Source: Scardovia inopinata JCM 12537
GTDB lineage: Bacteria; Actinomycetota; Actinomycetes; Actinomycetales; Bifidobacteriaceae
DNA: 64,000 bases
NCBI RefSeq assembly: GCF_001042695.1
Contig: NZ_AP012334.1
Span: 682,001 to 746,000, forward strand
Direction: 5' to 3'
Part shown: positions 10,396 through 56,088 of the stretch, piece by piece
Position numbering within the stretch: position 1 is the first letter of the stretch
Layout of the letters: every line of letters starts with the position of its first letter
Made by a program: the position numbers and the translations under genes
Notes under the pieces: model-generated
The model's input: the letters and a program-made list of their open reading frames with translations, nothing else
Databases searched by the model: none
Told to the model about the DNA's origin: nothing

Positions 10396-10420
10396 GAAAT
10401 CTGACAGGGAAGAAACGTAG

Positions 10421-37592: not shown

Positions 37593-37624
37593 TCAAAAAA
37601 CTGGAAATAATCTTAGTTGAAATG

Positions 37625-37732
37625 TATAATGTGCACTATCACTAGAGAATATGTAAATCTGTGGCAGAAGAAGTAGAACCCTGAGCAGATCGGACTGATT
37701 GATTGGATTGAGTGGATTGATTGATTGGATTG
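37625..37732 (+). promoter_or_regulatory. Putative promoter and repeated leader before the GNAT gene
   Basis: TATAAT at 37625-37630 matches the -10 consensus. Downstream, the 15-mer TGATTGATTGGATTG occurs at 37696-37710 and 37718-37732, a spacing of 22 bp, immediately before the start codon at 37735. Confidence 0.4.
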
Positions 37733-37734
37733 GC

Positions 37735-38205
37735 ATGCCGTATACACAGGTAATCGAAGATTTTACTGATTCCAGGTTTCAAAAAGCTTTTATAACATAT
37801 TTTTCCGAGTACGGGATTGTCAGGGAAGATTGGGACTCGTTGTTTCAACGAATGAATGATGAATGCGAAAATAAAGCCTTTGCAAGAGTTAATGATGACG
37901 AATGTATTATAGGGTTTCTTCAATTTCGACGAATACATTTTACTAGTTATTTTTTTGAGACTCAGTGTGGTTTTATTAGGGAATTTTGGGTTGCAAAAGA
38001 ATTTCGTAATCGTGGGAATGGTACTCATCTGCTTAATCTTACTGAAAATTACTTCATACAACATAACTATTCTGCAAGTATCCTTACAACAGATACAGAA
38101 GCTCAGTTCTATCAGAGGCGTGGCTATTGGAAGGCGATGGGTTTCAGATCCAAGAATAGCAATGAGGTTTTTATTAAAAATCTCACCAGGCATAGTGAAA
38201 AATGA
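37735..38205 (+). CDS. GNAT-family N-acetyltransferase
   Basis: A 156-residue protein with the GNAT fold. The core acetyl-CoA-binding region is IREFWVAKEFRNRGNGTHLL near residue 80, a version of the R/Q-x-x-G-x-G/A loop, followed by TTDTEAQFYQRRGYWKAMGF, typical of the fourth motif. The target molecule is unknown. The frame opens upstream at 37699, but those codons are the repeated TGATTGGAT leader, so ATG 37735 (MPYTQVIEDF) is preferred. It overlaps the next gene by 4 bp and is therefore probably translated together with it. Confidence 0.82.
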   Translation: MPYTQVIEDFTDSRFQKAFITYFSEYGIVREDWDSLFQRMNDECENKAFARVNDDECIIGFLQFRRIHFTSYFFETQCGFIREFWVAKEFRNRGNGTHLLNLTENYFIQHNYSASILTTDTEAQFYQRRGYWKAMGFRSKNSNEVFIKNLTRHSEK

Positions 38206-38921
38206 TTGATAAGCCTATGAGTGGTAATTGGAAATTTTTGATTCGTGCACATACCTTTGTGCTCGCAGCGGTGATTCTTGTCATAACGGTATTAACTATT
38301 GGAGCTACCCTTGTTATGGGGCATGAGGCTTCAGTGAAAAATATTTATGATGAACTCCTTCTGGAGGGGCCAGAATGTACTTTTCATGTATCTTTGCCTG
38401 GCAAGGGTAGTATTGCTATGCCGCGTGGATTCGAGACACATGATGGTGGTGTCGATCGTATCTCGAGCAGTTACCGCAGCTGGACGTATGAAGGCAATAA
38501 GTTGGGTCGTCTCCTTGCCAGTAAACTTTACAAGTCTGATGGTCTGTATCTGAGTCTCAGACGTTCACCGCGTAGCAATGCGGTTGAGATTTATGCAGAT
38601 AGTGGGCTTGCAATCGGGCGAGATGGCAATGGTTATGGAGTGAAAGTCGACTGGACGTACACTGCATCAAATCGCACCCTTATAAGAGAGATAACTTTTC
38701 TTCGCGACAACAGTATTGCCCGCAAACAGATTTCGGCAAAAGATTTCTTCTCGGGTGCGGGTCTTGATCGAAACGATGTGGAAAGATGGGCTAATCACGC
38801 TCTAAATGACCTTGTAATAAAAGAATACTTTGAAGCGAACAAGGGGCATACGCGCTTCACGGAGAATAATCCTGGTTCATTTACTGCGGCTGATACGACG
38901 GATTGGGGAAGTAAGAAGTAA
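38202..38921 (+). CDS. Membrane-anchored protein, possible TipC-family immunity protein
   Basis: The 239-residue product has an N-terminal hydrophobic segment (residues about 14-38) and a hydrophilic, presumably extracytoplasmic rest. The start of that part, VKNIYDELLLEG, and the end, YFEANKGHTRFTENNPGSF, loosely match my recollection of TipC proteins, which protect streptococci from the LXG toxin TelC. The similarity is weak and the call is tentative. No LXG or other polymorphic toxin gene is in this window, so if correct it is an orphan immunity gene. Its ATG overlaps the GNAT stop (ATGA). A second ATG lies at 38217. Confidence 0.4.
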   Translation: MIDKPMSGNWKFLIRAHTFVLAAVILVITVLTIGATLVMGHEASVKNIYDELLLEGPECTFHVSLPGKGSIAMPRGFETHDGGVDRISSSYRSWTYEGNKLGRLLASKLYKSDGLYLSLRRSPRSNAVEIYADSGLAIGRDGNGYGVKVDWTYTASNRTLIREITFLRDNSIARKQISAKDFFSGAGLDRNDVERWANHALNDLVIKEYFEANKGHTRFTENNPGSFTAADTTDWGSKK

Positions 38922-39079
38922 CATAACTGAATTTTGAGTACTCAGTTGCCATCGCTGCAGAAAGCAATTCACGAGAATAATTCTATACATTTCTAGTCCC
39001 ACGTTATTCCACTGATTCTGTCTCCAAATATGCATAAAACAGATTTTTTATAATTGCGGTTATTGGCGGATTAGCGGGT

Positions 39080-39187
39080 TATAGGAAAGTAGGCCTCACC
39101 CAACTGCAATGGTAAAAAATAACAATGGCGGAATTCCAGTCTTACTCTTTTCAAGCGTTGCAGTTGGGTGAGGCCTACTTTCCTATA
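39080..39187. mobile_element. MITE-like element with perfect 30-bp inverted ends
   Basis: A 30-bp sequence at 39080-39109 is repeated perfectly in inverted orientation at 39158-39187, enclosing 48 bp. The inner halves include CCTCACCCAACTGCAA. No transposase or target-site duplication is seen, so it may be an IS remnant, a MITE, or a very long hairpin. Confidence 0.6.
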
Positions 39188-39288
39188 CGAGTAGTTCTGT
39201 TTAATTTCGTGCATAAATTGTGCCGGTCAGATTAAGAATTGTACAGATGATTATTTAACAGGTAAGTAAAAGTAAATGAGCAATTCAA

Positions 39289-39332
39289 CGGTTCAACAAC
39301 GATTCAACAACGGTTCAACAAGTGCTCAACAA
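39289..39332. repeat. Four 11-bp tandem repeats
   Basis: Four head-to-tail 11-mers: CGGTTCAACAA, CGATTCAACAA, CGGTTCAACAA and GTGCTCAACAA. No gene covers 38922-39562. This stretch holds only the inverted repeat, these repeats and the operator-like repeats. Confidence 0.85.
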
Positions 39333-39397
39333 TTGAACGAGTACCTGAACAAGTACGGAGTACCGCTTATATTCTTCAATGTTCGTCCTGATTTTAT

Positions 39398-39479
39398 CCA
39401 AGTATGGCTATAAAACGTCCATATTTTCGCCACAAGTGTTTAAAATACGTCCATACTTTGGCCAGTTCCATGCTATAAT
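39398..39479 (+). promoter_or_regulatory. Operator-like repeats and promoter of the DUF4143 ATPase gene
   Basis: Two direct copies of a motif, ACGTCCATATTTTCGCCA at 39415-39432 and ACGTCCATACTTTGGCCA at 39447-39464, lie with an inverted partial copy CCAAGTATGG near 39398. A consensus -10 TATAAT is at 39474-39479, so the second copy overlaps the -35 position. Confidence 0.5.
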
Positions 39480-39562
39480 ATGAGTATTAATTCACAGAGT
39501 AAAGGTTTTTGTATTTATATTAAATATATAAATACAAAAAGACTAGAAATCAGGAGCTCTTT

Positions 39563-40864
39563 ATGGATCGTTTTCTCATGAAAAAACTTGTTGCTTGGAA
39601 AATAAACAGGAACAGGAAACCCTTGATCCTCAACGGAGCACGCCAGGTAGGAAAAACCTGGCTGTTGAAAGAATTTGGACGTCAATATTTTACGAATGCT
39701 GCGTATATTAATCTTGACAATAATCCACGTATGATGAGTCAGTTTGACCTGGATTTCAATACTGAACGTCTTCTTCTCGCCTTCGAAGTTGAAACCGGTG
39801 AGCAGATAGTTCCTGGGAAAACTCTTATCATACTCGACGAAATTCAAGAATGCCCCAAAGCGTTGACTTCTCTTAAATATTTTTCTGAGAATGCTCCAGA
39901 GCAGATGATTGTAGCTGCAGGTTCTCTTCTGGGAATTACCATTCATGCAGGAAGTGGATATCCTGTAGGGAAAGTTGATTCGATGGATCTTTATCCTTTG
40001 AATTTTAGGGAATTCTTAGAGGCGACGGGGAACACAAATTTGAGAAAACTCATCGAAAGCAATCACACTGAGATGGCTGAAAGTTTCTCAACTAAACTTA
40101 TTCCCTTGCTCAAACAATATTATTTTGTGGGAGGAATGCCTGAAGTTGTCAAAATTTTTCTTGATACGAATAATTTTGGCGAAGTGCGTAGGACTCAGCA
40201 AAATATTCTTCAAGGATATGAGCGGGATATATCGAAGCATATGACTGCTTCTGAAATAGAATATACATTAGCTGCATGGAATTCAATTCCCGCACATCTT
40301 GCCCAAGAGAATAAGAAATTTATCTTTGGACATATTAAGAAAGGGGCTCGTGCCCGCGAGTATCGTTCGGCAATTACCTGGCTCAGTCAAGCTGGTCTTG
40401 CTACCAGGGTAACCAGAATTTCTGATCCTGGGATTCCTTTATCAGGTTATGCGCAGGATAATGTTTTCAAACTTTTTCTGCTGGATGTTGGTCTGCTTGG
40501 AGCAATGGTGGGGCTCGATCCAAGCAGTATGCTCGACAGCAGAACAATTTTCACAGGATTTAAAGGAGCGCTGACCGAACAATATGTGTGTCAGCAGCTT
40601 ATTTCTGATGGTGGATTCACACCCTTTTATTGGTCAGCTGATAATTCTCGGGGAGAGATTGATTTTATTGTTCAGAAAGGATCTGACATTTTCCCCATTG
40701 AAGTCGCAGCAGAAGAGAATTTGAGGTCCAAAAGTTTGCGCGCTTTTACTGATAAATATACCGGTATGCACCCCTTACGCTTCAGCTTGTCTCCGTTCAA
40801 GGATCGAGCTTGGATGCGCAATATTCCACTCTACGAATGCACGAATGTGAATTTATGGAAATAG
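39563..40864 (+). CDS. AAA ATPase with DUF4143 (AAA_14 family)
   Basis: The 433-residue protein starts with an AAA_14 domain: Walker A LNGARQVGKTWLLKEFG near residue 24, Walker B TLIILDEIQECP near 91, and AAGSLLG near 119. The C-terminal half is DUF4143 (GFKGALTEQYVCQQLI, YWSADNSRGEIDFIVQ, PIEV). The latter is a restriction-endonuclease-like fold with Glu, Asp and PIEV residues in place. Such genes are common, mobile and often strain-specific. The function is unproven, though defence or toxin-like roles have been suggested. AGGAG lies before the ATG. It is transcribed alone behind repeated operator-like motifs. Confidence 0.9.
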   Translation: MDRFLMKKLVAWKINRNRKPLILNGARQVGKTWLLKEFGRQYFTNAAYINLDNNPRMMSQFDLDFNTERLLLAFEVETGEQIVPGKTLIILDEIQECPKALTSLKYFSENAPEQMIVAAGSLLGITIHAGSGYPVGKVDSMDLYPLNFREFLEATGNTNLRKLIESNHTEMAESFSTKLIPLLKQYYFVGGMPEVVKIFLDTNNFGEVRRTQQNILQGYERDISKHMTASEIEYTLAAWNSIPAHLAQENKKFIFGHIKKGARAREYRSAITWLSQAGLATRVTRISDPGIPLSGYAQDNVFKLFLLDVGLLGAMVGLDPSSMLDSRTIFTGFKGALTEQYVCQQLISDGGFTPFYWSADNSRGEIDFIVQKGSDIFPIEVAAEENLRSKSLRAFTDKYTGMHPLRFSLSPFKDRAWMRNIPLYECTNVNLWK

Positions 40865-40925
40865 GGAGGGAAGTGCATACAACCCTTGAATACTAAGTAA
40901 TACAAAATATTACGAAGTAAAAACT

Positions 40926-40947
40926 GACGGTATAATGACGGTATAAT
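40926..40947 (+). promoter_or_regulatory. Tandemly duplicated -10 element upstream of the DUF1287 gene
   Basis: Two perfect head-to-tail copies of GACGGTATAAT give consensus -10 boxes at 40931-40936 and 40942-40947. The start codon is at 40956, so a transcript from the second box would have almost no leader. Confidence 0.6.
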
Positions 40948-40955
40948 AAGAAAAT

Positions 40956-41675
40956 ATGAGCCAGCGAAGTAAGAAAAAGATAGTCATTAGGATTACGAGG
41001 ATTGCAGCAGCCGTCATCTGCCTGAGCTTGATAATTGGACTTGTATATTATCTCTGGGCTAATCCCTGGTGGAACAATCATGGAACGAGTCTTACATCCG
41101 AAACCAAAGATTATTCGCAAGAGTTTAAAATTCCGCAGGTGCATAGCTCTCACGATGCTGATCATGATGGAATTGATGATCAAATAGATATGTTGAAAAG
41201 TGCCAGGGCTTATGTTGCTGGTCATCCTCGGTATAAAAGCAAATATTACAGTGGAGGTTATCCAACTGACCGTTATGGGGTCTGCACCGATGTTGTGGCA
41301 GCAGCTTTTAAGGGAACTGGCTATGATTTGCGCCTGATGGTTGACGCAGACATCCGGTCGAATTTAAAGATTTATGGCCTTGCTTCAGCAGACAACAATA
41401 TTGATTATCGTCGGGTAAAAAATCTTCGTATTTATTTTCCCCGCGCGGCCGCAAGAGGGCAATTCATATCGCTGACTACTGACGTGAAGAAAATCAAGGA
41501 CTGGCAGGGAGGGGACATAGTGATTTTTGCCAATCATGTTGCTCTTGTTTCCAATAAACGTGATTCGCATGGGATTTCTTATGTTATTCATCTTCATGAT
41601 CCGAATCAGAAGTCGTATGAACAGGATTACCTGCCGGGTCGTACTGATATCGTCGGCCACTATCGCCTGGCGTGA
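40956..41675 (+). CDS. DUF1287 family envelope protein
   Basis: The 239-residue protein has a basic N-terminus (SQRSKKKIVIRITR), one membrane anchor or signal segment at residues 14-36, and a DUF1287 domain. Its signatures are YSGGYPTDRYGVCTDVVAAAF with the putative catalytic Cys, LMVDADIRSNLKIYG, NIDYRRVKNL, and WQGGDIVIFANHVALVS with the His. The family is related to NlpC/P60-like cysteine peptidases and is probably a cell-wall hydrolase (inference). It has a duplicated -10 promoter and is followed 60 bp later by the UDG-like gene. Confidence 0.85.
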   Translation: MSQRSKKKIVIRITRIAAAVICLSLIIGLVYYLWANPWWNNHGTSLTSETKDYSQEFKIPQVHSSHDADHDGIDDQIDMLKSARAYVAGHPRYKSKYYSGGYPTDRYGVCTDVVAAAFKGTGYDLRLMVDADIRSNLKIYGLASADNNIDYRRVKNLRIYFPRAAARGQFISLTTDVKKIKDWQGGDIVIFANHVALVSNKRDSHGISYVIHLHDPNQKSYEQDYLPGRTDIVGHYRLA

Positions 41676-41735
41676 AAGGAAGTTTCGTGAGCAATGAAAT
41701 GTGGCTCAAATTCGAGATAGCATGAGAATTTCCAG

Positions 41736-42443
41736 ATGATTTCTAATGTGATTAGCAAGGAAAATTTTCAGCTGCATCCTTTTGCAGCTGATCAGCAGGA
41801 AACGCCGGAAATCCAGCACATTATTAATGACATCATTGCTGATCCCATGAATCAGGATTTCACTAGCAGGAATATTCAGCCACTCGTATCCATTCATCAA
41901 CAAGCACGAATCGTCCTTATTGGCCAGGCACCGGGCAGGGCAGCTCAGGATTCGATGATTCCCTGGAATGATAGGAGCGGGGATCGGTTACGGCAATGGA
42001 TGGGAATTGATAAGAATACTTTTTATCAGTCTGACCGTATAGCAATTATGAATATGGATTTTTATTATCCTGGCAGCAAAGGTGATAGAAGATGTGCAGA
42101 TGGGGCAGGGAAGAAACCAAGAAAAGGACCTTCTTCTGATCTTCCTCCTCGATCCGGATTCGCTGAAAAATGGCATCCTTTGCTTCTGGAACAAATGCCC
42201 AACGTTAAATTAATTCTTTTAATTGGTTTTTATGCAGTTCGGAAATATCTGGGACTCAGGCCAAAAGACAGGCTGACTGATGTGGTTAAGGATTATCAGG
42301 GGAATCCTCTTTATTTTCCTCTGGTCCATCCCTCTCCCCGTAACCAGATCTGGATGACGAAAAATCCCTGGTTTGCTGGGGAAACCTTGCCTTTATTGAA
42401 AAGACGGGTAAGGCAGACTCTCGACTTACCACTTACCGTATAA
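41736..42443 (+). CDS. Uracil-DNA glycosylase superfamily protein
   Basis: A 235-residue protein with UDG-superfamily motifs. Motif 1 is VLIGQAPGRAAQDS near residue 60, followed by IPWNDRSGDRLRQWMGI. Motif 2 is FPLVHPSPRNQIW near 196. The second strand region IAIMNMDFYYPG matches the family's uracil-pocket area, and LILLIGFYAVRKYLG lies between. This subclass is annotated widely in Firmicutes and bifidobacteria as uracil-DNA glycosylase family protein. Its base specificity is unknown. The TAA stop sits inside an 11-bp tandem repeat. Confidence 0.85.
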   Translation: MISNVISKENFQLHPFAADQQETPEIQHIINDIIADPMNQDFTSRNIQPLVSIHQQARIVLIGQAPGRAAQDSMIPWNDRSGDRLRQWMGIDKNTFYQSDRIAIMNMDFYYPGSKGDRRCADGAGKKPRKGPSSDLPPRSGFAEKWHPLLLEQMPNVKLILLIGFYAVRKYLGLRPKDRLTDVVKDYQGNPLYFPLVHPSPRNQIWMTKNPWFAGETLPLLKRRVRQTLDLPLTV

Positions 42444-42576
42444 AATGAGCATAAAATGAGCATGAGCATGAATAGAATATGAATATATGAATGGCTTACA
42501 TAATCTGACGGGACATTCCATTTATAAGTATTTCTGGCCTGAACCCGAGATAAAGTGAGATAAAGTAAGATAAAAT
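42441..42576. repeat. Two clusters of tandem repeats before the channel gene
   Basis: At 42441-42462 two copies of TAAAATGAGCA stand head to tail. At 42547-42576 three 10-mers follow each other: GAGATAAAGT, GAGATAAAGT and AAGATAAAAT. Each 10-mer has a -10-like TAAAGT or TAAAAT, about 45-70 bp before the channel start. Confidence 0.75.
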
Positions 42577-42619
42577 ATGATGCAGAATGTGTTTTTCTCC
42601 TACATGAATCGAGGAATCA

Positions 42620-43426
42620 ATGGATGATGATATGAATCTCCTGGAGGAAATCAGTTCCGAAGGAACCACTGCTGATCCTGATGATAGGGAAGACCTTGCT
42701 AAAAATTCTCAGAAACAGGGAATTCGGTGGAAGCTGCATGATCTTATCAATGGGAAAAGTGAAGCCTCCAGCGTGTATGGAAAGTCCATGAGTTTTATCA
42801 TTATCATAAGCCTGATTCCTCTGTGTTTCAAGCAGACCTGGCCTATTTTCACCGTAATTGAGTATATCTGTACGGCTATTTTTATTCTTGACTATTTGGT
42901 GCGGTGGATAACTGCGGATTATCAGTATGAGCAAGGAATTTGGTCTTTCCTTGTGTATCCTTTCAGGCCCATGGCTATTATAGATCTTCTATCGATCCTT
43001 CCCTCCTTCCTGGCGCTTAATTCGGTCTGGCGATCGCTGCGGACTCTTCGTTTGTTCAGAGCAGTGAGAGCTTTCAAGTTTATCCGTTATTCAAAGAGCG
43101 TTCGAGCCCTGGCCAGGGTTATTCTCAAGCAAAAAGAATCCTTGGCAATCGTTCTGTTTTTCTCCCTGGGATATGTTGCTATTACGGCTGTACTCATTTT
43201 CAACGTGGAGCCTCAAACGTTTCATTCGTTTTTTGATGCCTTGTATTGGGCTGTAGTCAGTCTGACCACTGTTGGCTACGGAGATCTGTACCCCACGACA
43301 GAAGTGGGTAAGGTGATTGCTATGCTGTCATCCATTATGGGGGTAGTAGTTGTGGCTATGCCCTCAGGTATTATCACAGCTGGTCTGGTTGATGAACTCA
43401 AAAGGGAGTCGCGCCGCACTCTGTAG
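42620..43426 (+). CDS. Voltage-gated potassium channel (six-helix Kv type)
   Basis: A 268-residue channel subunit. After a polar 45-residue N-terminus, helices S1-S3 span about residues 53-135. S4 carries regularly spaced arginines (RSLRTLRLFRAVRAFKFIR near 138). S5 and S6 flank a pore loop with the selectivity filter TTVGYGDLYP near 216. It would form a homotetramer in the cytoplasmic membrane. A short C-terminal end without RCK domain follows. GAGGAA precedes the ATG. Confidence 0.93.
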   Translation: MDDDMNLLEEISSEGTTADPDDREDLAKNSQKQGIRWKLHDLINGKSEASSVYGKSMSFIIIISLIPLCFKQTWPIFTVIEYICTAIFILDYLVRWITADYQYEQGIWSFLVYPFRPMAIIDLLSILPSFLALNSVWRSLRTLRLFRAVRAFKFIRYSKSVRALARVILKQKESLAIVLFFSLGYVAITAVLIFNVEPQTFHSFFDALYWAVVSLTTVGYGDLYPTTEVGKVIAMLSSIMGVVVVAMPSGIITAGLVDELKRESRRTL

Positions 43427-43465
43427 TCTCAGGGTAGTCTCATGTTTCCAGCAGGATGTGTGTTT

Positions 43466-43822
43466 TTATCTGTTATTAATCCAGTCAGTCAAATCAGGCT
43501 CGACCAGGCTGACTTGCAGATTCAGGTCTTCTCCATGATCTTCCGGAGTCATGACTAGGCATTCATCCCAATACTCCAGGTGTTTTTTGTCTATCCAGGA
43601 AGTGGATTCCTCAACATTCTGACCTCCCTCTTTCTGGAAGGTGAACCAGTAAAGGTACATGTGATCATCGCGGACTTCGGAGAAGATATTTTCCACATAC
43701 ATTTTCTCGCCCTTGAGCGTCAGGAGCGTATCGGACATGTGAGTATTAAGAAAAGTCATCCATTCGAGAGCCTTCTCTTCTTTTCCCTTTTTGACGGTAA
43801 ACCTACTAAGTTCGGTAATCAT
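43466..43822 (-). CDS. DUF6176 family protein
   Basis: The 118-residue cytosolic protein reads like DUF6176: ELSRFTVKKGKEEKALEWM, then TLKGEKMYVENIFSEV, then YWFTFQKEGGQNVEEST and IDKKHLEYWDECL. I know this family mostly from Firmicutes. It has a ferredoxin-like, dimeric-barrel-like length, but no function is established. It is convergent with the channel gene and divergent from the acetyltransferase gene, so it has its own promoter at 43823-43916. Confidence 0.75.
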   Translation of the reverse strand: MITELSRFTVKKGKEEKALEWMTFLNTHMSDTLLTLKGEKMYVENIFSEVRDDHMYLYWFTFQKEGGQNVEESTSWIDKKHLEYWDECLVMTPEDHGEDLNLQVSLVEPDLTDWINNR

Positions 43823-47562: not shown

Positions 47563-48069
47563 ATGGCAAGATTGGCACTAGTAGTTTTTTCTCAAACGGG
47601 AATTACATTCAGGCAGGGGGAGGTTCTTTCGGATATTCTGAGAATACCTCTTATTCGTCTTGAGCCTCAGCAGCCCTATACAACTGCTGATATAGATTGG
47701 CATAATGATAAATGCCGGGCTAATCGAGAGATGGGTGATGAATATTCCAGACCAGGCATAAAGCCCCTGCCACTTCCCGAGGACTTCGATCTGCTTTTCC
47801 TGGGATTTCCTCTCTGGTGGGGAACCGCTCCCCGGGTGGTTGATACTTTTGTTGAAGCATCAGACCTGAAGCACAAGAAAATTGCCCTTTTTGCAACGTC
47901 AGGTTCCAGCCCGGCAGATCAGTCTGCCAGGGATCTTCAGAAGCTGCTTCCGGAGACGAAGATTCTTGATGCCCAGAGGGTAAATGGCTTCAGCAGAAAA
48001 AAGCTGGAAGAATGGGCTGAAAAGATGATTTCAGAAGCAGATAATGAAGCCGATCAGAAAGGAAGCTAA
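47563..48069 (+). CDS. Flavodoxin-like protein
   Basis: The 168-residue protein resembles the flavodoxin_4 family. The FMN phosphate loop reads VVFSQTGITFRQGEVL near residue 8. The second loop is FLGFPLWWGTAPRVVDTF near 85, and the third is LFATSGSSPADQS near 112. It probably carries electrons or reduces quinones. AAAGGA precedes the ATG. Its TAA overlaps the ATG of the broken oxidoreductase remnant that follows, so it once formed an operon with an NAD(P)-binding partner. Confidence 0.85.
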   Translation: MARLALVVFSQTGITFRQGEVLSDILRIPLIRLEPQQPYTTADIDWHNDKCRANREMGDEYSRPGIKPLPLPEDFDLLFLGFPLWWGTAPRVVDTFVEASDLKHKKIALFATSGSSPADQSARDLQKLLPETKILDAQRVNGFSRKKLEEWAEKMISEADNEADQKGS

Positions 48070-48180: not shown

Positions 48181-48203
48181 AAGTGATAGCAAAGGTGATA
48201 ACA

Positions 48204-48968
48204 ATGGCTAAGATTATACAAACAGCAGGACGGGATCGACTGGGAGATTTTGCTCCGCAATTTGCCCATTTTAATGATGACGTCCTCTTTGGTGAAGAAT
48301 GGAATAATGCTGATATATCTTCAAAAACTCGCAGCATTATTACCATTTCTGTTTTTATGGGACGGGGACTGGCTGATTCGTCTCTTAAGGCTCATCTTGT
48401 GATGGGGAAGAAAAATGGGATCAGCCGGAAGGAAATAACCGCCATCATAACTCACGCAGCTTTTTATGCTGGCTGGCCGGTTGCCTGGGCTGTTTTCACA
48501 ATGGCACAGGAGATATGGACAGAGGATGAAGACACTGACCAGGGTCTGCAGGTGGGAAAGGCTGATAACCCTTCCCTGGAAGAGTATGCTAAGACGATTT
48601 TCTTCCCCATTGGAGACCCTAATGATGCCTATGCTCAATACTTTGATGGTCAGAGCTATCTAGCACCCATACAGACAGAAGGGCTGGACATCTCCAATGT
48701 GACATTTGAGCCTGGCTGCCGCAACCATTGGCACATTCATCATGCTTCCCAGGGCGGTGGTCAGATGCTGATTGCGGTTGGTGGCCGGGGCTACTATCAG
48801 CTGGAAGGGCGGGAACCAGTGGAACTTAAACCTGGTGATACAGCCTTCATTCCCCCTAATACCAAGCATTGGCATGGGGCAGCTCCGGACAGCTGGTTCT
48901 CGCATTTAGCTTTTATGGTGCCTGGGAAAGATATGAGCAATGAGTGGCTGGAACCAGTGGAAGGGTAG
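48204..48968 (+). CDS. Carboxymuconolactone decarboxylase-like and cupin fusion protein
   Basis: A 254-residue two-domain cytosolic protein. The N-terminal part is a CMD/AhpD-like fold (FGEEWNNADISSKTRSIITISVF, SLKAHLVMGKKNGISRKEI, THAAFYAGWPVAW) without the AhpD CxxC pair. The C-terminal part is a cupin with metal ligands HWHIHHASQGGGQ near 180 and PPNTKHWHGAAPDSWFSHL near 222. Such fusions are usually annotated as cupin/CMD proteins and occur with flavodoxin and oxidoreductase genes in redox-stress operons. AAAGGTGAT precedes the ATG at 48204. The frame opens at 48183. Confidence 0.88.
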   Translation: MAKIIQTAGRDRLGDFAPQFAHFNDDVLFGEEWNNADISSKTRSIITISVFMGRGLADSSLKAHLVMGKKNGISRKEITAIITHAAFYAGWPVAWAVFTMAQEIWTEDEDTDQGLQVGKADNPSLEEYAKTIFFPIGDPNDAYAQYFDGQSYLAPIQTEGLDISNVTFEPGCRNHWHIHHASQGGGQMLIAVGGRGYYQLEGREPVELKPGDTAFIPPNTKHWHGAAPDSWFSHLAFMVPGKDMSNEWLEPVEG

Positions 48969-49092
48969 GCCAGAGCTGGTTGGCGACAACGGGCAGGTCG
49001 GAAAGGTGGTTATACACGATAGAATAGCTTAACTGCCAGGTCTCTTTTGGATCTGGCTTTCCGATCCGGCCCGGTCTTAATAAGGAGTGCTT

Positions 49093-50700
49093 ATGTCTGG
49101 TGAGAAAATATACAGGGATGTTCCCATCTCTGACAGACCAGACAGGCCTGTTAGCCTTGACAGGCCAATTCATCGAATTCCCCATCAAATTCGGGCTATT
49201 CGATCTCTTCAGATTTCCTTTGAACGGCCTTTTCCCCAGGAAAGAGAGTCTGTTTTTGTCCACCAGGCTCAGCTCTTACACTCATACGAGGATGATTTTT
49301 ATTATCCCTATCAGGTGATTCATTATTATCCAACCTTTGCTTCTCTGACTGACGAGGAGCTGAGAGGCTATGTGGGCTGGAGGACCAGGCTGAGAAAAGG
49401 CCAGGGTCAGGCTGAATCCCTGACCTATGCGTATTTGTATATTTATGAAATAATTAATCAGATTGGGATATCTGAACCTCGTGACGGATTCAGCCAATTG
49501 ACTGATTTCTTTTCCCTTTATGGGAGCTGGGATCCGCATATTCTTAAATTTAAAGATCAGTGGCTGCAGGATTATGTGGTCTACTATCAGCTTGATTCCC
49601 AGCTTCTTCCGCCTGGATGGGACCTGGCTTGGGATCAGGAGCTTTGGGCTTTTGAGCATCCTTTTCAGGCAGATGATAAGACCCTGTCGGCAGCTACGAT
49701 GGCAGCTTCAGGTCTGAATCTTGCTGCCAAATCAGTCTATAAAAAACATGGTGATCTTCTTGACGCTGCACTTCATGTAATGGCTGGAGTATTCCGGCAG
49801 ATGACGGATCATTATTCACGCAGGCGGAAGAACTCTCTTTTTACTGACTATTTTGGCAGCAAAGGCACTGTTCCCTATGATATTTTTGAGACAGTGCCCT
49901 TGTATAAAACGAAGAAATATAAGAATAGAGATTATGATTATGCTGTTGATCGTGACAGAATTTTCCATTCCTCCCATGGTTGGTGGTCAGTAACAGGGTA
50001 TGACCATCCCCGGGGGCGGAACATAAAGATGCATAAATTGGTGGATAATCTTGATCGCTGCATTCGTCTGCATTACAATTTGACCAGGGCGTCAGAAAGA
50101 ATTCCTCAGCTGCCGGCATGGATGAATAAAATAATAAATGATGAGCTGGTCCGCTGGGATCAGCATCTCGCTGCCCTCCGCAGACAGACCGTTACTGTGG
50201 ACCTGTCTCAGCTGGAAAGCATCCGTTCTGATGCAGCCGTAACCAGAGATAAGCTGATTGTGGAAGAAGAGACTGATGCTCCGGCTGAGGCAGACGGTGT
50301 AGATCGGACTATGAGCCAGGCTGCTAATTTTCAGGCTGCTGATTTTGATATGCAGGAGCATTGCCCTGGAGCCGACAGGAAGGGGAGGGCTGAGGAAAAC
50401 GGTCAGCCTGGTGAGGAAGGTCTTAGGACATCTGAGGATAAAGAGGATAAAGAAGAGAGTATTTCGTCTGGCCCTGCCCTGCTAAACCCCCAGGAAGTCA
50501 GACTGCTGTCCTGCCTGTTGCGTGGAGACAGTCTGGACTGGGTCAAGCATGAGGGGGAGGCAGTCTCCCTCTTGGTCGATTCCATTAACACTAAACTTTA
50601 TGATCAATTTCTCGATACAGTGATAGAAGGTGACGACTCGCCGCAGATTATTGAAGATTACAGGGATGATGTGGAATCTCTGATTGCCATGATAGAATAG
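49093..50700 (+). CDS. TerB-N/TerB-C domain protein of a three-gene DNA-processing cassette
   Basis: The 535-residue protein begins with a short linker and a TerB-N-type domain: YPTFASLTDEELRGYVGWR near residue 80, YLYIYEIINQIG near 115, and LQDYVVYYQLDSQLLP near 157. The end is TerB-C-like: LLSCLLRGDSLDW, then VDSINTKLYDQFLDTVIEGD and QIIEDYRDDVESLI. A Gln/Glu/Asp-rich, poorly conserved segment (about 390-450) separates the halves, and I see no central TerB helical core. AAGGAG lies five bases before ATG 49093. It is the first of three same-strand genes with a BrxD-like ATPase and a helicase. Its role is probably to sense or scaffold (inference). Confidence 0.82.
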   Translation: MSGEKIYRDVPISDRPDRPVSLDRPIHRIPHQIRAIRSLQISFERPFPQERESVFVHQAQLLHSYEDDFYYPYQVIHYYPTFASLTDEELRGYVGWRTRLRKGQGQAESLTYAYLYIYEIINQIGISEPRDGFSQLTDFFSLYGSWDPHILKFKDQWLQDYVVYYQLDSQLLPPGWDLAWDQELWAFEHPFQADDKTLSAATMAASGLNLAAKSVYKKHGDLLDAALHVMAGVFRQMTDHYSRRRKNSLFTDYFGSKGTVPYDIFETVPLYKTKKYKNRDYDYAVDRDRIFHSSHGWWSVTGYDHPRGRNIKMHKLVDNLDRCIRLHYNLTRASERIPQLPAWMNKIINDELVRWDQHLAALRRQTVTVDLSQLESIRSDAAVTRDKLIVEEETDAPAEADGVDRTMSQAANFQAADFDMQEHCPGADRKGRAEENGQPGEEGLRTSEDKEDKEESISSGPALLNPQEVRLLSCLLRGDSLDWVKHEGEAVSLLVDSINTKLYDQFLDTVIEGDDSPQIIEDYRDDVESLIAMIE

Positions 50701-50728
50701 AACATATGTTCGATTACTGGAGGCGATC

Positions 50729-52042
50729 ATGAGGATTCCCAAGAGAATCAGTCAGACTGTCATCAACTCACTTAAAGGCGGCGTCGTGCCCAGAATTGGG
50801 CTGCCATATATAACTGTGGGCAGGAAGAATGAGATCGATGCTTTCCTGCATGATGCCGAGATAATCTCTCAGGGAGGAGCATCGTTCCGGTTCATTGCAG
50901 GCCGGTATGGCAGTGGAAAAAGTTTTCTTCTGCAAACTATACGTAACTATGTTATGTCCAAAAATTTTGTAGTTGTCGATGCTGATTTGTCGCCTGACCG
51001 CCGCCTTCAGGGGACCAAAGGACAGGGGCTGGCTACTTACCGGGAACTGATACAAAACATGTCAACTAAAACAAGACCCGAGGGTGGCGCCTTAACCCTG
51101 ATTCTTGATCGATGGATCAGTGGTATTCAAGGCCAGGTCAGACAGGAGCTGGGGCTGGACTTCGGTGATCCGGCCCTGGCTCCAGCAGTCGATAAGAAGA
51201 TATCTGAGGTCATTTTTAGCCTGTCCGATATGATTCACGGTTATGACTTTTCCCACCTGTTGACCTTGTATTATCAGGCTTATCTGAAAGGTGATGAGCA
51301 ACAGAAAGCCAAGGTTGTCCGCTGGTTCAGGGGAGAATATGATACAAAGACTGAGGCCAGGCAGGAACTTGGCATAGGAATTATTATCAGTGATGATGAC
51401 TGGTATGATTACCTGAAAGTATTTGCCAACTTTCTGACTTATGCTGGGTACTCGGGAATGCTCATCCTGATTGATGAACTGGTCAATATCTATAAAATTC
51501 CCAACGCCATCACCAGACAGAATAATTATGAGAAAATATTAACCATGTATAATGATGCCATGCAAGGGAAGGCTCATCATATAGGTGTAATTATGAGCGG
51601 AACCCCTGAATGTATGGAGGACAGACGTCGTGGAGTATACAGCTATGAGGCTCTGCGCTCGCGTTTGGCCCAGGGGCATTTTTCTGGCGAGCATAAGGAT
51701 CTTCTGGCCCCAGTCATTGACTTGCAGCCACTGACAGCTGAAGAAATGCTGGTTTTGGTTGAAAAACTTGCTGATATTCATGCCGGTTTATACGGCTACC
51801 AGCATATGCTCAAGCAGGATGATCTGGTTACTTTTATCACAATTGAGTTCGCTCGAGTGGGAGCTGATTCCCATATCACACCCCGGGAAATTATTCGAGA
51901 TTTCATAGAGGTGCTGGATATTATTTATCAGAATCCGTCTCTGACAGTAACCCACCTTCTTCACTCTGATGACTTCACCTATGCTCGTACTGCTATTGAC
52001 AGTCAAGAAACTACCAAAGAATTTGCCCAATTTGAGATTTAG
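50729..52042 (+). CDS. BrxD-like AAA+ ATPase (DUF2791 family)
   Basis: The 437-residue P-loop ATPase begins IPKRISQTVINSLKGGVVPRIGL, followed by VGRKNEIDAFL and Walker A FIAGRYGSGKSFLL near residue 58. Walker B is GMLILIDELVNIYK near 247, and MSGTPECMEDRRRGVYSYEAL near 290 is a sensor-like segment typical of this family. TPREIIRDFIEVLD closes the C-terminal part. BrxD proteins occur in type II-like BREX and related helicase pairs. The gene starts 28 bp after the TerB gene, with GGAGG before the ATG, and precedes the helicase gene, its usual partner. Confidence 0.88.
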   Translation: MRIPKRISQTVINSLKGGVVPRIGLPYITVGRKNEIDAFLHDAEIISQGGASFRFIAGRYGSGKSFLLQTIRNYVMSKNFVVVDADLSPDRRLQGTKGQGLATYRELIQNMSTKTRPEGGALTLILDRWISGIQGQVRQELGLDFGDPALAPAVDKKISEVIFSLSDMIHGYDFSHLLTLYYQAYLKGDEQQKAKVVRWFRGEYDTKTEARQELGIGIIISDDDWYDYLKVFANFLTYAGYSGMLILIDELVNIYKIPNAITRQNNYEKILTMYNDAMQGKAHHIGVIMSGTPECMEDRRRGVYSYEALRSRLAQGHFSGEHKDLLAPVIDLQPLTAEEMLVLVEKLADIHAGLYGYQHMLKQDDLVTFITIEFARVGADSHITPREIIRDFIEVLDIIYQNPSLTVTHLLHSDDFTYARTAIDSQETTKEFAQFEI

Positions 52043-52112
52043 CTGTCCCCAATCCCTGCAAGAGAGAAATACGGAAGTGGAATGATCAACCCAGGAAAGC
52101 AGGTAAACAGAA

Positions 52113-54398
52113 ATGGATGTGTTTAACCGGTATGCGCCTTTTGTACAGGACTATATTTACAGAAATGACTGGAAGAATCTTCGGGCTGTTCAAGTAGCCG
52201 CAGCTGAGGCTATTTTTCATACCGACGATAATGTTCTGCTGACTGCGTCTACGGCATCTGGGAAAACGGAAGCGGCCTTCTTTCCCATCATTACCCTCTT
52301 CTGTGAGAATCCTCCTTCTTCAGTGGGCTGTATTTATATTGGTCCTCTGAAGGCACTGATCAACGATCAATTTTCGCGTTTAACGGATTTATGCAAAGAA
52401 GCTGACATTCCCGTTTGGCATTGGCATGGGGACGTTGCTCAATCCCATAAAAACCGGCTTCTACGGCACCCCTCCGGTATTCTCCAGATTACCCCGGAAT
52501 CCCTGGAAGCCCTTCTTCTACATAAACATTCCGCCATTCCTCAACTCTTCTGTGATCTGCGATTTATAGTCATCGATGAAGTTCACTCACTTCTCAGGGG
52601 AGATCGGGGAGGGCAGACTCTCTGCCTGATTGAACGTCTCTCCCGCCTGGCTGGAGTTAATCCCCGAAGAATTGGTCTGTCTGCCACAATTGGGGATCCC
52701 CAGAAAACTGGAGATTTTTTGTCTGCAGGAACTGGAAGAAGAACGATCATTCCTCAGTTTGATTCCCCCCGTGCTCCCTGGCGCTTATCTATGGAACATT
52801 TCTATATTAAAGATACTCAGGCCGCATCGGGGAAGACAATAGAACAAGCAGCTCAGCCTCTGGACCAGAAAACTGACAATGCTCCTCCTAAAGCGGACCC
52901 AGGCATAGGCTACATTTTTGAACATACTCGAGGCAAGAAATGTCTGGTCTTTGTGAATTCCAGGGAAGAGTGTGAGTCGATAACCACTGATTTAAGACGG
53001 TATTGTGAGGAAAATCATGAACGAGACCGATTCCTGATTCATCACGGCAACTTGTCTACTTCTTTTAGAGAAACAGCAGAAGATCTGATGAAAGATGATT
53101 CCCAACTGCTGACAACTGTTACCACGTCGACCCTGGAGTTGGGGATTGATATTGGCCGGTTGGAGAGGGCTTTTCAGCTAGATGCTCCCTGGACAGTTTC
53201 CTCCTTCCTCCAAAGAATGGGACGTACTGGCCGCAGGGGCAAGCCTGCGGAAATGTGGTTTGTCATGAGGGAAGATGAGCCAGAACCCCGGGCTATGCTT
53301 CCTGCAACCATACCTTGGAAACTTTTACAAGGAATTGCCATGGTTCAGCTTTATTTGGAGGAGAAATGGGTGGAACCGGCTAATCTGGGACGACTGCCAT
53401 ATAGTCTTCTCTATCATCAGACCATGAGTATTCTTGCATCCAGTGGGGAAACGTCCCCAGCCGCCCTGGCATCTCAGGTATTGTCTTTGACGTATTTTCA
53501 CAGAATCAGCCAGGAAGACTACCGGGTTCTCCTGCGCCACCTTATTTCCATCGGGCATATTCAGCAGACACCTGAGGGTGGATTAATCGTTGGTCTGGCG
53601 GGGGAGAGAGTGGTCAATACCTATAAGTTCTATGGGGTTTTCCAGGAGAGTGAAGAATTTACTGTGCGCAGTGAGTCCCGTGAACTGGGAACGATTGTAT
53701 CGCCCCCTCCCGTGGGAGAAAAACTTGCTATAGCAGGTCATGTGTGGACTGTCCTTGATATAGATAGAAAACGGCGTCTGGTGTATTGTCAGATGGTTAA
53801 GGGGAAAGTTCCTGCATATTTTGGTGAATGCCCCGGGGATATTCACACTCGAGTTTTAGAGAGGATGCAGAAGGTCCTGTCAGAGAACAAGTCTTACCCC
53901 TATCTGATGAAGAACGCGGTAGCCCGCCTGGATCAGGCCCGGTTTACAGCCTTCCATTCGGGCACTGACCGAAAGCCTCTGATACATTTAGGTGGTAGCA
54001 CATGGTGTCTTTTACCTTGGTTGGGAACTTACTCTTTTATGGCTCTGGAACGTTTTCTGAAAATCCGGTGTTCCAATAGACTGGGATTGAAAAATCTGAA
54101 TTCTTTCAAACCTTTCTACCTGCAGTTCACTATGAAGGTTGATGAGAAAACATTCTTTGCTGTTCTGGCTGATGAAGTAAAAAGGCCTCTTGATCCCATG
54201 GAACTTGTCTACAAGGGAGAAGTTCCTTACTTCAACAAGTATGATGAATATGTTCCTGATTCCTTGGTACGCAAAGGATTTGCTTATGGAATACTGGATA
54301 TTGAGGGTATGAAAAAAAGAATTAGCCTCTGGACTTCCTCTCTGATTGAATCGGAACCTGTAGCTAGGACAGGACTGGATAGTAGGATAGGGGAATGA
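52113..54398 (+). CDS. DEAD/DEAH-box helicase, Lhr/BrxH-like
   Basis: The 761-residue superfamily 2 helicase has motif I TASTASGKTEAAFFP near residue 44, Ia YIGPLKALINDQFSRL, motif II VIDEVHSLLRGDRGGQ near 153, motif III GLSATIGDP near 190, and motif VI QRMGRTGRRG near 369. The N-terminal YRNDWKNLRAVQVAAAEAIF is a Q-motif-like region. The long C-terminal 350 residues match Lhr/BrxHI-type helicases rather than RecQ or UvrD. It should use ATP to remodel DNA or RNA with the BrxD-like ATPase. It ends in ATGA, overlapping pcp by 4 bp. Confidence 0.9.
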   Translation: MDVFNRYAPFVQDYIYRNDWKNLRAVQVAAAEAIFHTDDNVLLTASTASGKTEAAFFPIITLFCENPPSSVGCIYIGPLKALINDQFSRLTDLCKEADIPVWHWHGDVAQSHKNRLLRHPSGILQITPESLEALLLHKHSAIPQLFCDLRFIVIDEVHSLLRGDRGGQTLCLIERLSRLAGVNPRRIGLSATIGDPQKTGDFLSAGTGRRTIIPQFDSPRAPWRLSMEHFYIKDTQAASGKTIEQAAQPLDQKTDNAPPKADPGIGYIFEHTRGKKCLVFVNSREECESITTDLRRYCEENHERDRFLIHHGNLSTSFRETAEDLMKDDSQLLTTVTTSTLELGIDIGRLERAFQLDAPWTVSSFLQRMGRTGRRGKPAEMWFVMREDEPEPRAMLPATIPWKLLQGIAMVQLYLEEKWVEPANLGRLPYSLLYHQTMSILASSGETSPAALASQVLSLTYFHRISQEDYRVLLRHLISIGHIQQTPEGGLIVGLAGERVVNTYKFYGVFQESEEFTVRSESRELGTIVSPPPVGEKLAIAGHVWTVLDIDRKRRLVYCQMVKGKVPAYFGECPGDIHTRVLERMQKVLSENKSYPYLMKNAVARLDQARFTAFHSGTDRKPLIHLGGSTWCLLPWLGTYSFMALERFLKIRCSNRLGLKNLNSFKPFYLQFTMKVDEKTFFAVLADEVKRPLDPMELVYKGEVPYFNKYDEYVPDSLVRKGFAYGILDIEGMKKRISLWTSSLIESEPVARTGLDSRIGE

Positions 54399-55078
54399 AT
54401 TTTATGCATAAAACAGTAGTGATTACTGGCTTCGACCCCTTTGGAGGAGAGCCTGTTAACCCAGCTTTCCAGGCCGTCTCCCTCTTACCTGATGCAGTCG
54501 TTTACGGTCAGGGTCAGCAGGCTGATGTGATCAAAGCAGAAATTCCAACCTCATTTACCCGATCAAAACAGGCTGTGACTGAGCTGGAAAATCATTATCA
54601 TCCTGACCTGTTTATCTCAGTTGGTCAGGCTGGAGGACGTTCCGCTATTACCGTGGAAAGAGTAGCTATCAATCTAGAAGACGCCCGCATACCAGATAAT
54701 GATGGGGAAGAACCACATGATCAGCCTGTTATTCAGGGAGATCAAACCGCATATTTTTCCACTTTGCCTGACAAAAATATCGTTAAATCCATGAACGAAC
54801 AAGGAATTCCAGCCCAGCTGTCGTACACAGCAGGAACATATGTATGCAATGCCGTCATGTACACCCTTCTTGCGCTCAGGCAGGATGAAAAAGGACCGGA
54901 AAGGAAGCCGCCGCATATCTCCGGCTTTATTCACGTTCCCTATTCAACAGAGCAGGGCAAGGGTAAACCAGAAGGAACTCCGACCATGCCGGTGGATACC
55001 ATGGCCCAGGGATTGCAGACAGCAATAGCAGTGTGTCTGGAAAGCCTCAGCATAGTACAGTCCAGGCCTGGAAACTGA
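54395..55078 (+). CDS. pcp: Pyrrolidone-carboxylate peptidase (pyroglutamyl peptidase I)
   Basis: This cytosolic cysteine peptidase removes N-terminal pyroglutamate. The 227-residue protein has VVITGFDPFGGEPVNPA at the start, the catalytic Glu in VGQAGGRSAITVERVAINL near residue 78, the catalytic Cys in YTAGTYVCNAVMYTLL near 152, and the catalytic His in SGFIHVPYSTEQ near 178. All three are intact. The ATG at 54395 overlaps the helicase stop. ATG 54404 (MHKTVV) is an alternative and closer to the family start. Co-translation with the helicase may be accidental. Confidence 0.95.
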   Translation: MNFMHKTVVITGFDPFGGEPVNPAFQAVSLLPDAVVYGQGQQADVIKAEIPTSFTRSKQAVTELENHYHPDLFISVGQAGGRSAITVERVAINLEDARIPDNDGEEPHDQPVIQGDQTAYFSTLPDKNIVKSMNEQGIPAQLSYTAGTYVCNAVMYTLLALRQDEKGPERKPPHISGFIHVPYSTEQGKGKPEGTPTMPVDTMAQGLQTAIAVCLESLSIVQSRPGN

Positions 55079-55116: not shown

Positions 55117-56031
55117 TCAGTAAAAGCGGTTAAAGAAGGCAATTTCGTCCTTATTACACTGCAGAGCCACAGGATTTCTTACATCGCAATGAAAAACATG
55201 GCCCTGAGGATTTTTGCTATCCCCATAAGAATGGAACTCGTGCTCGGCTCCAATTCCAGAAAGATAACCGTCCAGGCGGACGCTGCAATCCCGGATAAAA
55301 TCGTCGTTAGCCGTTTGAATAAAGAGAGGAGGAAGATCAGCAGTCATATATTTTTCAGTTGCAATCATGTCCTGGCGGTCTTGGAGCGAATCCTTGGTAA
55401 AGTATGCTTCTATAGCTCCAGAAATTATTCCTGGCATAGTCAGGAAAGAAGCCCCACAGTTAACAGCAGCAGCCTTTACCGTCAGTTTGGGGAGTTCATA
55501 GCCGAAAAGAGCCCGGAACTGAGGATTAGTCAAGATTGTCAGATATTGATCAACCATCTGGCCACCAGCACTATCTCCAACAAGAAAGAGACGGGAAAGA
55601 TCAAGATTGTAGTCCCCCGCATGATGGTCCAGCCAGTGAAAAACTCGATCAACATCATCCATCTCCTGGGGAAAGTGGGAATGAGGAGGAAGACGATAAT
55701 TGAAATTTATACAGGCAAAGCCCATCTGAGCCAGACTCATCAGATAAAACTGATAAGTTTCCTTAGTTCCATAAACCCAGCCGCCCCCATGAATGCTGAC
55801 AATAACTGGGGCTCCTTTCTGATGCTGAGAATCAGACTTTTGAGGAGCATATTCTTCGGGCAGATAAATATCCAGGAGATTCCATTTGCCTGCTGGACCG
55901 TAACTGATATCATCATAACGGACAACACCAGGGACCTGCAAGGGCAGCCCCTTATCCCGCTTGTCATCATTCTTCTTAGCAGCGATATTCATAGCGGTAG
56001 CCGCTGCCAAAGCCTGTGGACTCGCAACCAT
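55117..56031 (-). CDS. Alpha/beta hydrolase (HSL/carboxylesterase family)
   Basis: The 304-residue protein is an alpha/beta-fold esterase: oxyanion motif VSIHGGGWVYGTKE near residue 80, nucleophile elbow LVGDSAGGQM near 151, Asp in TANDDFIRD near 253, and His in GHVFHCDV near 284. The substrate is unknown. No signal peptide is clear. The frame opens at a GTG (56037), but AAAGGAG lies five bases before ATG 56031, so that start is preferred. It is convergent with pcp. A duplicated promoter-like motif lies upstream at 56089-56122. Confidence 0.88.
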   Translation of the reverse strand: MVASPQALAAATAMNIAAKKNDDKRDKGLPLQVPGVVRYDDISYGPAGKWNLLDIYLPEEYAPQKSDSQHQKGAPVIVSIHGGGWVYGTKETYQFYLMSLAQMGFACINFNYRLPPHSHFPQEMDDVDRVFHWLDHHAGDYNLDLSRLFLVGDSAGGQMVDQYLTILTNPQFRALFGYELPKLTVKAAAVNCGASFLTMPGIISGAIEAYFTKDSLQDRQDMIATEKYMTADLPPLFIQTANDDFIRDCSVRLDGYLSGIGAEHEFHSYGDSKNPQGHVFHCDVRNPVALQCNKDEIAFFNRFY

Positions 56032-56088
56032 GGCCACTCCTTTGTCATCCTTGCTTATCTTTGATTACCTGTGCTCGTCTGCGCCAGG

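What the first reader, a model, noticed from the sequence alone, without database searches (positions are those of the whole stretch)
49093..54398. Three-gene TerB-N/C, BrxD-like ATPase and Lhr/BrxH-like helicase cassette
Three same-strand genes with short gaps (28 and 70 bp) encode a TerB-N/TerB-C protein, a DUF2791/BrxD AAA+ ATPase and an SF2 helicase. BrxD and BrxH-type helicases are known partners in BREX-type systems, and TerB-N/C genes have been predicted in DNA-processing and stress modules. There are no PglX, PglZ, methylase or nuclease genes here, so this is a stand-alone triad. I infer it may protect DNA from phage or other foreign DNA, with TerB-N/C as a sensor or scaffold. The helicase and ATPase active-site motifs are intact.
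Basis: partly seen in the sequence, partly recalled or inferred. Interest (0 to 1): 0.8.

Follow-up and report, generated by a model that had tools for sequence, protein, structure and literature searches.

The report
Shango anti-phage defence system
These three genes are a known bacterial virus-defence system called Shango, carried as an insert in the chromosome; the only mildly new point is that its first protein changes about five times faster than the other two, which suggests that this protein is the one that faces the virus.

Summary
In detail: three intact same-strand genes (49093-50700, 50729-52042, 52113-54398; gaps 28 and 70 bp) encode a TerB_N/TerB_C protein, a BrxC/BrxD-type ATPase and an SF2 helicase. 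Of 80 named loci, 71 have A-B-C contiguous. In G002 (same genus) the cassette and the following pyroglutamyl-peptidase gene are missing and the flanking genes lie 165 bp apart. SngA diverges fastest: lowest identity in 2211 of 2211 pairs; median dN 4.8 times that of SngB, against 1.1 for SngC. SngA here is a short form without the TerB core domain that a Klebsiella SngA has. I infer that SngA is the phage-facing sensor or adaptor, SngB a loader and SngC an Lhr-like DNA translocase; the mechanism is unproven, here and in the papers I saw. Verdict: an ordinary new member of a known system.

The parts
49082..49087 (+). AAGGAG, likely ribosome-binding site of sngA
   Evidence: read from sequence; inference
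49093..50700 (+). sngA: TerB_N (aa 26-212), helical/beta middle (213-360), TerB_C (361-528) split by a disordered hypervariable linker (about 393-461); no recognisable TerB core domain
   Evidence: PADLOC SngA 8.5e-53; Pfam TerB_N, TerB_C, no PF05099 at E <= 1; model pLDDT mean 83.2, under 50 at 393-419 and 423-461; linker 42% identical in close pairs against 80-89% for the folded parts
50470..50697 (+). SngA C-terminal domain (aa 460-535), winged-HTH-like in the model
   Evidence: weak fold match to LysR-type DNA-binding domains: Z 5.5, rmsd 3.4, 71 aligned, tied with unrelated rows; Foldseek prob 0.60, E 3.6; a lead only
50729..52042 (+). sngB: BrxD-like AAA+ ATPase (P-loop GRYGSGKS, Walker B DE)
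   Evidence: PADLOC SngB 6.8e-188 (BrxD only 2.4e-46); PF10923; residues invariant in 67 of 67
52113..54398 (+). sngC: SF2 helicase, Lhr/BrxHI-like
   Evidence: PADLOC SngC 1.3e-274; Lhr 5v9x Z 26.2 over 548 residues; motif residues invariant in 67 of 67
54395..55078 (+). pcp: pyroglutamyl peptidase, overlaps the sngC stop (ATGA); lies in the same insert, probably a passenger, not part of Shango
   Evidence: Peptidase_C15 4.1e-64; no pcp in 80 named Shango loci (68 with at least 700 bp held after sngC) nor in L115/L116

Best explanation
This is a complete, probably working Shango anti-phage system (sngA-sngB-sngC) carried as a module between two chromosomal genes (identity: about 0.97). Proposed mechanism (about 0.4, inferred): SngA recognises a sign of infection, such as a phage protein or a phage DNA-replication intermediate, through its fast-evolving TerB_N/middle part, and may touch DNA through its C-terminal domain; SngB, by likeness to BrxD an Orc/Cdc6-type AAA+ ATPase, loads or licenses SngC; SngC, an Lhr-like SF2 DNA translocase, tracks along and remodels phage DNA and blocks its replication. 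Pfam shows no nuclease domain in the three proteins, so either unwinding alone stops replication or a host nuclease finishes the DNA. The confidence given is for the identity and the defence role, not for the mechanism.
For: Shown: the three PADLOC Shango families are the top matches, in the right order; the same three families top a Klebsiella plasmid triad; 71 of 80 named loci have A-B-C contiguous; catalytic residues are intact; anti-phage activity of the PA14 system, 10-100-fold EOP on many but not all phages, is published (PMC10250203, passages). Insert: cassette plus pcp absent in G002, where the esterase and CMD/cupin genes are neighbours. HGT: SngB of this genus falls with Bacillota-dominated rows, apart from the seven other rows of its family; the family label needs 5 changes. 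SngA fast evolution: lowest identity in 2211 of 2211 pairs; median dN SngA/SngB 4.8 against SngC/SngB 1.09 in 20 disjoint close pairs, whose median identities are 75.1, 95.6 and 93.8%. Loader idea: proposed for BrxD with BrxHI (PMC12839542, passages). Clade of SngC, BrxHI, DruE, DpdJ: PMC12278908 (passages). [quoted passage not shown]
Against: No mechanism for Shango turned up in the listings seen (one search listed 5 of 5,951 and 20 of 42), so the steps are by analogy. SngA dN/dS is 0.08-0.44 where defined (19 of 20 pairs, several with saturated dS), so there is no gene-wide positive selection; a loosely constrained scaffold would also evolve fast. The wHTH match is weak and tied with unrelated folds. 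DruE carries nuclease domains; Pfam shows none in SngC. PMC13192584 places DruE in a YprA-like family, another grouping than that of PMC12278908. SngA here lacks the TerB core that PMC10952713 lists for Shango and that the Klebsiella SngA has. This copy was never tested against phage.
Confidence: 0.9

Rival explanations
1. A degenerate or partial BREX (Pgl-like) locus: BrxD and BrxHI left over without methylase and phosphatase.
For: SngB matches BrxD and SngC matches BrxHI; Pfam calls SngB BrxC_BrxD.
Against: Shango models score far higher (623 against 157; 911 against 402 bits); SngB misses the NCBIfam BrxD cut-off (156.5 against 350); PglZ in the own genome is one match below cut-off, about 0.2 Mb away; the same triad is contiguous in 71 of 80 loci.
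Confidence: 0.02
2. A DNA-repair or tellurite/stress module (Ter-type stress response) rather than phage defence.
For: TerB domains are named for tellurite resistance, and a Ter-linked DNA-processing role was proposed before (Anantharaman 2012; title seen in a reference list; paper not held). Lhr and MrfA, the best folds, are DNA-repair helicases by my recall.
Against: Homologous systems were shown to act against phages. Patchy presence (15 of 119 relatives searched have any SngB-like match, the own genome among them), absence from G002 and SngB-like matches on 691 plasmid records (all under 60% identity, and may include BrxD) fit defence better than housekeeping.
Confidence: 0.05
3. Shango acts by abortive infection: SngA is the effector, released when SngB/SngC meet phage DNA.
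For: Hachiman, another helicase system, works by a helicase that frees an effector (PMC12278908 and its preprint, abstract starts). Liquid-culture protection alone does not separate the two.
Against: SngA shows no known enzyme domain: 43 of 43 relatives give TerB_N and TerB_C, with only 2 YjbR and 1 Csd3_N matches besides. [quoted passage not shown]
Confidence: 0.25

Closest known systems
Shango (SngABC; P. aeruginosa PA14, PMC10250203; E. coli, Millman et al. 2022, recalled and cited there)
   Same: Three genes: TerB-like, ATPase, DEAD/DEAH helicase, in this order; top PADLOC family for each; same three top families as a Klebsiella plasmid triad
   Different: Short SngA without a recognisable TerB core; SngA only about 30% identical to its relatives (median); followed by pcp; no defence island seen around it in a partial PADLOC scan
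Type 2 BREX / Pgl (BrxD + BrxHI dyad)
   Same: Related ATPase and helicase that pair tightly
   Different: No PglZ above cut-off in the genome; only one PF10923 protein; SngB below the BrxD equivalog cut-off; PglX and PglW were not searched for genome-wide
Druantia (DruE)
   Same: Helicase reported in one SF2 defence clade with SngC (PMC12278908); sensor plus helicase logic (PMC13192584)
   Different: DruE profiles are 1460-2055 positions long and DruE carries PLD domains; Pfam shows no nuclease in SngC

Membership tests
Shango | TerB-like protein (SngA) | tested here: met
   PADLOC SngA 178.7 bits, profile 65-527 of 528; TerB_N and TerB_C above cut-off
Shango | TerB core domain PF05099, listed for Shango in a review table (PMC10952713); I do not count it as defining | tested here: inconclusive
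   No match in the window SngA (E <= 1), in 43 of 43 SngA of this lineage (E <= 0.01) or in a Paenibacillus SngA; present in a 769-aa Klebsiella SngA (31.7 bits), which aligns to the same PADLOC profile of 528 positions with about 215 residues extra. So long and short forms share the family model; a diverged TerB core is not excluded
Shango | ATPase SngB | tested here: met
   PADLOC SngB 623 bits, 5-438 of 439
Shango | DEAD/DEAH helicase SngC | tested here: met
   PADLOC SngC 911 bits, 5-715 of 720
Shango | Three genes contiguous in the order A-B-C | tested here: met
   gaps 28 and 70 bp; 71 of 80 named loci the same
Shango | Protects against phage | not testable with these tools
   published for PA14 and cited there for E. 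coli, not for this copy
BREX | PglZ | tested here: not met
   none above cut-off in the own genome; one match at 21.1 bits (cut-off 25), about 0.2 Mb away
BREX | PglX methylase or BrxC beside the genes | tested here: not met
   the five neighbours scanned are PGA_cap, flavodoxin, CMD/cupin, pyroglutamyl peptidase and esterase; a single PF10923 match in the genome; PglX not searched genome-wide
BREX | BrxD equivalog | tested here: not met
   NF033438 156.5 bits, cut-off 350

The most novel reading that the evidence does not exclude
SngA is the arms-race face of Shango: a sensor/adaptor whose folded TerB_N/middle part reads a phage signal and whose winged-HTH-like C-terminal domain, tied by a hypervariable linker, brings DNA to the SngB-SngC loader-translocase. 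The short SngA of this lineage does this without the TerB core, and swapping SngA alone would change phage range.
Probability: 0.3. Interest if true: 0.5.

Novelty: new member of a known kind. Interest (0 to 1): 0.2.

Why it matters
Mainly as annotation: it names an unlabelled locus and shows Shango as a clean module in a chromosome. The rate contrast (SngA about five times the dN of SngB, SngC about equal) gives a direct, testable pointer to which subunit meets the phage, in a system for which I found no reported mechanism in the listings and passages seen. The TerB core, present in one long SngA and not found in 43 short ones, looks dispensable for the system's make-up.

Tried and rejected
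BREX remnant: rejected. Hidden nuclease or other enzyme in SngA: Pfam on 43 SngA gave TerB_N/TerB_C, with 2 YjbR and 1 Csd3_N besides; a profile search of PDB sequences gave nine weak hits (best E 0.044); Foldseek gave no match at E <= 0.001. The cyclin/TFIIB-like rows for residues about 176-366 are at Z 5.0 or less and I do not use them. No SngB relative by sequence in the PDB at E <= 0.01. No SngB match in 50,697 phage records. Promoter and terminator scans were near the shuffle expectation (13 against 8.5, sd 3.1; 5 against 6.0, sd 2.7) and are not used. A profile comparison of SngA with the Klebsiella SngA aligned only 59 C-terminal columns (probability 37.9), so it does not place the missing TerB core. 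A paper search for Shango with TerB, subtype and domain listed two papers, both already seen.

A fourth Shango gene: pcp is absent from the other loci. Extra sequence between sngB and sngC in L022 is repeat-like without a clear gene; L030 has a gap of similar size that I did not read; L026 has 8.4 kb of what look by eye like metabolic genes. Module swapping of SngA: pairwise identities fall smoothly with those of SngB and SngC (Spearman 0.76 and 0.81), so fast evolution fits better; this was not tested by gene trees.

Results against: strict regular expressions found motifs in 29 to 67 of 67 systems (29 for DEVHSL, 50 for the Walker B pattern, 60 for QRMGRTGR, 65 for two others, 67 for LSAT) because they fixed variable neighbours; the column count gives 67 of 67 for the catalytic residues. 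The pairing of window and G001 SngB has support 92/91, under the starred level, and the 34-row set around it 83/67; the smallest starred set holding the window has 40 rows. The window is in none of the 20 close pairs, so the rate ratio is that of its relatives; its own pair with G001 shows the same contrast (35, 75 and 74%).

Rows dropped: of 80 named loci 65 had all three genes complete and entered the rate analysis, with the window and G001 making 67. Of 308 confirmed relatives only the best 80 were kept by the tool, chosen through SngB, so SngB conservation is favoured by the choice; SngC, not selected on, gives the same value. The SngA alignment for the model used 43 and the SngC alignment 30 sequences that I picked. 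dS was undefined for SngA and SngB in L068/L078 and for SngB in L070/L076.
Full report
What is there. Three open, same-strand genes lie at 49093-50700, 50729-52042 and 52113-54398, with gaps of 28 and 70 bp. Pfam finds TerB_N and TerB_C in the first, BrxC_BrxD in the second, DEAD and Helicase_C in the third, all above cut-off. A fourth gene, pyroglutamyl peptidase (54395-55078), overlaps the third gene's stop by four bases. Upstream lie a flavodoxin (47563-48069) and a CMD/cupin gene (48183-48968), downstream an esterase (55117-56037, minus strand).

What it is. The best PADLOC families are SngA (8.5e-53, 178.7 bits, profile 65-527 of 528), SngB (6.8e-188, 5-438 of 439) and SngC (1.3e-274, 5-715 of 720), in the order of the Shango system. 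Shango was described as a TerB-like protein, an ATPase and a DEAD/DEAH helicase; cloned from P. aeruginosa PA14 into PAO1 it lowered plating of many, not all, phages 10-100-fold and protected liquid cultures; E. coli Shango is cited there as acting about 10-fold on two phages (PMC10250203, passages read). The original E. coli paper (Millman et al. 2022) I know only by recall and through that citation.

How conserved it is. A scan of genomes of 84,980 species with SngB patterns gave 308 confirmed relatives, of which the tool kept the best 80. Of these 80, 78 have matches to all three proteins and 71 have A-B-C on one strand with gaps under 150 and 200 bp. The nine others: two lack a SngC match (L024, whose contig ends just after sngB, and L089), two have about 0.9 kb between B and C (L022, L030), one has 8.4 kb (L026), and four have a shortened or displaced best ORF (L054, L069, L071, L092). 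SngB-like matches occur on 691 plasmid records, 542 of them predicted conjugative, all under 60% identity, so BrxD may be among them; the two I opened, from Paenibacillus and Klebsiella, carry the TerB_N - ATP-binding - helicase trio, and the Klebsiella trio has SngA, SngB and SngC as top PADLOC families. None was found in 50,697 phage records. Catalytic residues of SngB and SngC are invariant in 67 of 67 complete systems.

A short SngA. PMC10952713 lists the TerB core domain PF05099 for Shango (passage). It is present in the 769-aa Klebsiella SngA, between TerB_N and TerB_C (31.7 bits, cut-off 24.4), but was not found in the window SngA, in the 43 SngA proteins of this lineage that I aligned or in the Paenibacillus SngA. 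Both forms match the same PADLOC profile. I take this as two forms of SngA within Shango; a diverged TerB core is not excluded, and the profile comparison was not informative.

How it got here. Of 119 genomes searched among relatives, 15 have a SngB match, the own genome among them, nine of the 15 at 64% identity or more. In G002, of the same genus, the genes that flank the cassette are neighbours: esterase 9745-10749 and CMD/cupin 10915-11682 of L115, 165 bp between them, with the next genes on the esterase side (permease, phosphoribosyltransferase, helicase, named by eye) in the window's order; on the other side of the CMD/cupin gene no match to the compared part of the window was found. So Shango and pcp lie in the window as one insert of about 6 kb, or were lost in G002. 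In G001, also of the genus, sngABC lies between the same CMD/cupin gene and the esterase, without pcp and with the esterase turned round. On a SngB tree of 90 rows the window and G001 pair (support 92/91) among Bacillota-dominated rows, while the seven other rows of the family fall elsewhere; the family label needs 5 changes. This argues for several horizontal acquisitions in the family. Base composition gives no help: GC is 0.45-0.49 across the cassette, like its surroundings.

The one fresh observation. SngA evolves far faster than its partners. Over 67 complete systems (65 of the 80 named loci plus the window and G001) SngA has the lowest identity in 2211 of 2211 pairs; medians are 30.5% (SngA), 69.7% (SngB), 69.5% (SngC), and the fall is smooth through all identity bands. 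In 20 disjoint close pairs, median identities 75.1, 95.6 and 93.8%, the median dN ratio is 4.8 for SngA/SngB and 1.09 for SngC/SngB. The window is in none of these pairs, but its pair with G001 shows 35% (SngA) against 75% and 74%. SngC is the control for the choice of loci through SngB. Within SngA the linker 394-460 is 42% identical in the close pairs, and the folded parts (80-89%) too lie below SngB. dN/dS of SngA is 0.08-0.44 in the 19 pairs where it is defined, some with saturated dS, so constraint is weaker but there is no gene-wide positive selection. Fast evolution fits a subunit that meets the phage, and also a loosely constrained scaffold.

Structure. The SngA model is confident (mean pLDDT 83.2) except for the N-terminus and residues 393-461. 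Its C-terminal 75 residues resemble LysR-type winged-helix DNA-binding domains, weakly (Z 5.5, rmsd 3.4, 71 aligned, within 1 of unrelated rows; Foldseek E 3.6, prob 0.60). The SngC model is of middling confidence (mean pLDDT 73.3, poor in parts of the second helicase domain) and aligns best with the helicase Lhr bound to ssDNA (5v9x, Z 26.2, rmsd 4.1, 548 residues), next with the DUF1998 helicase MrfA (Z 23.4). PMC12278908 puts SngC, BrxHI, DruE and DpdJ in a potentially distinct clade of defence SF2 helicases (passages). PMC12839542 suggests that BrxD may load or activate BrxHI and notes that the two form a tight dyad in BREX; Shango and TerB do not occur in its main text (passages and term counts).

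How it probably works. Shown: identity, order, intact motifs, modular presence and fast SngA. Inferred: SngA senses infection or adapts the machine to phage DNA; SngB, by likeness to BrxD, loads SngC; SngC moves along DNA and stops phage replication. DruE-DruH gives a working parallel, with a likely sensor and a helicase effector on ssDNA-containing intermediates (PMC13192584, abstract start and passages), but DruE has nuclease domains that Pfam does not show in SngC. I give this mechanism about 0.4, abortive action about 0.25.

Novelty. Searches for Shango with TerB, with the SngA/B/C names, with mechanism, and for TerB with cryo-EM and helicase listed no paper that I recognised as a mechanistic study of Shango; some listings were cut (5 of 5,951, 20 of 42), and the library lacks most subscription papers. 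A review and a survey list the mechanism as unknown (PMC12926258, PMC10855318, passages). The locus itself is a new member of a known kind, and ordinary.

Noticed in passing
window 39563-40864 (+): AAA_14/DUF4143 ATPase matching the PADLOC candidate family PDC-S01 (576.8 bits; Pfam), inside a low-GC stretch 37501-43500 (0.39-0.44).
   Followed up: partly
window 54395-55078 (+): Pyroglutamyl-peptidase gene overlapping sngC by 4 bp (ATGA), absent from the site in G002 and G001 and from 80 of 80 named Shango loci as held; G001 and G002 have only distant relatives (30-32%) elsewhere. It looks like a passenger of this insert.
   Followed up: yes
window 28212-30689 (-): Xylulose-5-P/fructose-6-P phosphoketolase (XFP domains); with a 1.8 Mb genome this suggests a Bifidobacteriaceae host (inference).
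   Followed up: partly
L119:2676-4985 against window 49093-50700: The Klebsiella plasmid SngA is a long form with TerB_N, TerB core and TerB_C; the window's lineage has a short form in which the TerB core is not found.
   Followed up: partly
L022:11315-12186 and L030:3529-4447: About 0.9 kb between sngB and sngC in two related Clostridia genomes; in L022 there is no clear gene and the small ORFs repeat each other on both strands, so it looks like repeat-rich spacer DNA. L030 was not read.
   Followed up: partly
L116:1772-8292: In G001 several genes without a match in the compared part of the window (one looks like an ABC-type ATPase by eye) lie between the purine permease and the esterase beside Shango, so this site may collect inserts.
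   Followed up: no
L092:8087-13586: Lactobacillus delbrueckii DSM 20074 carries a broken-up Shango in which the best ORFs cover only parts of sngB and sngC.
   Followed up: no
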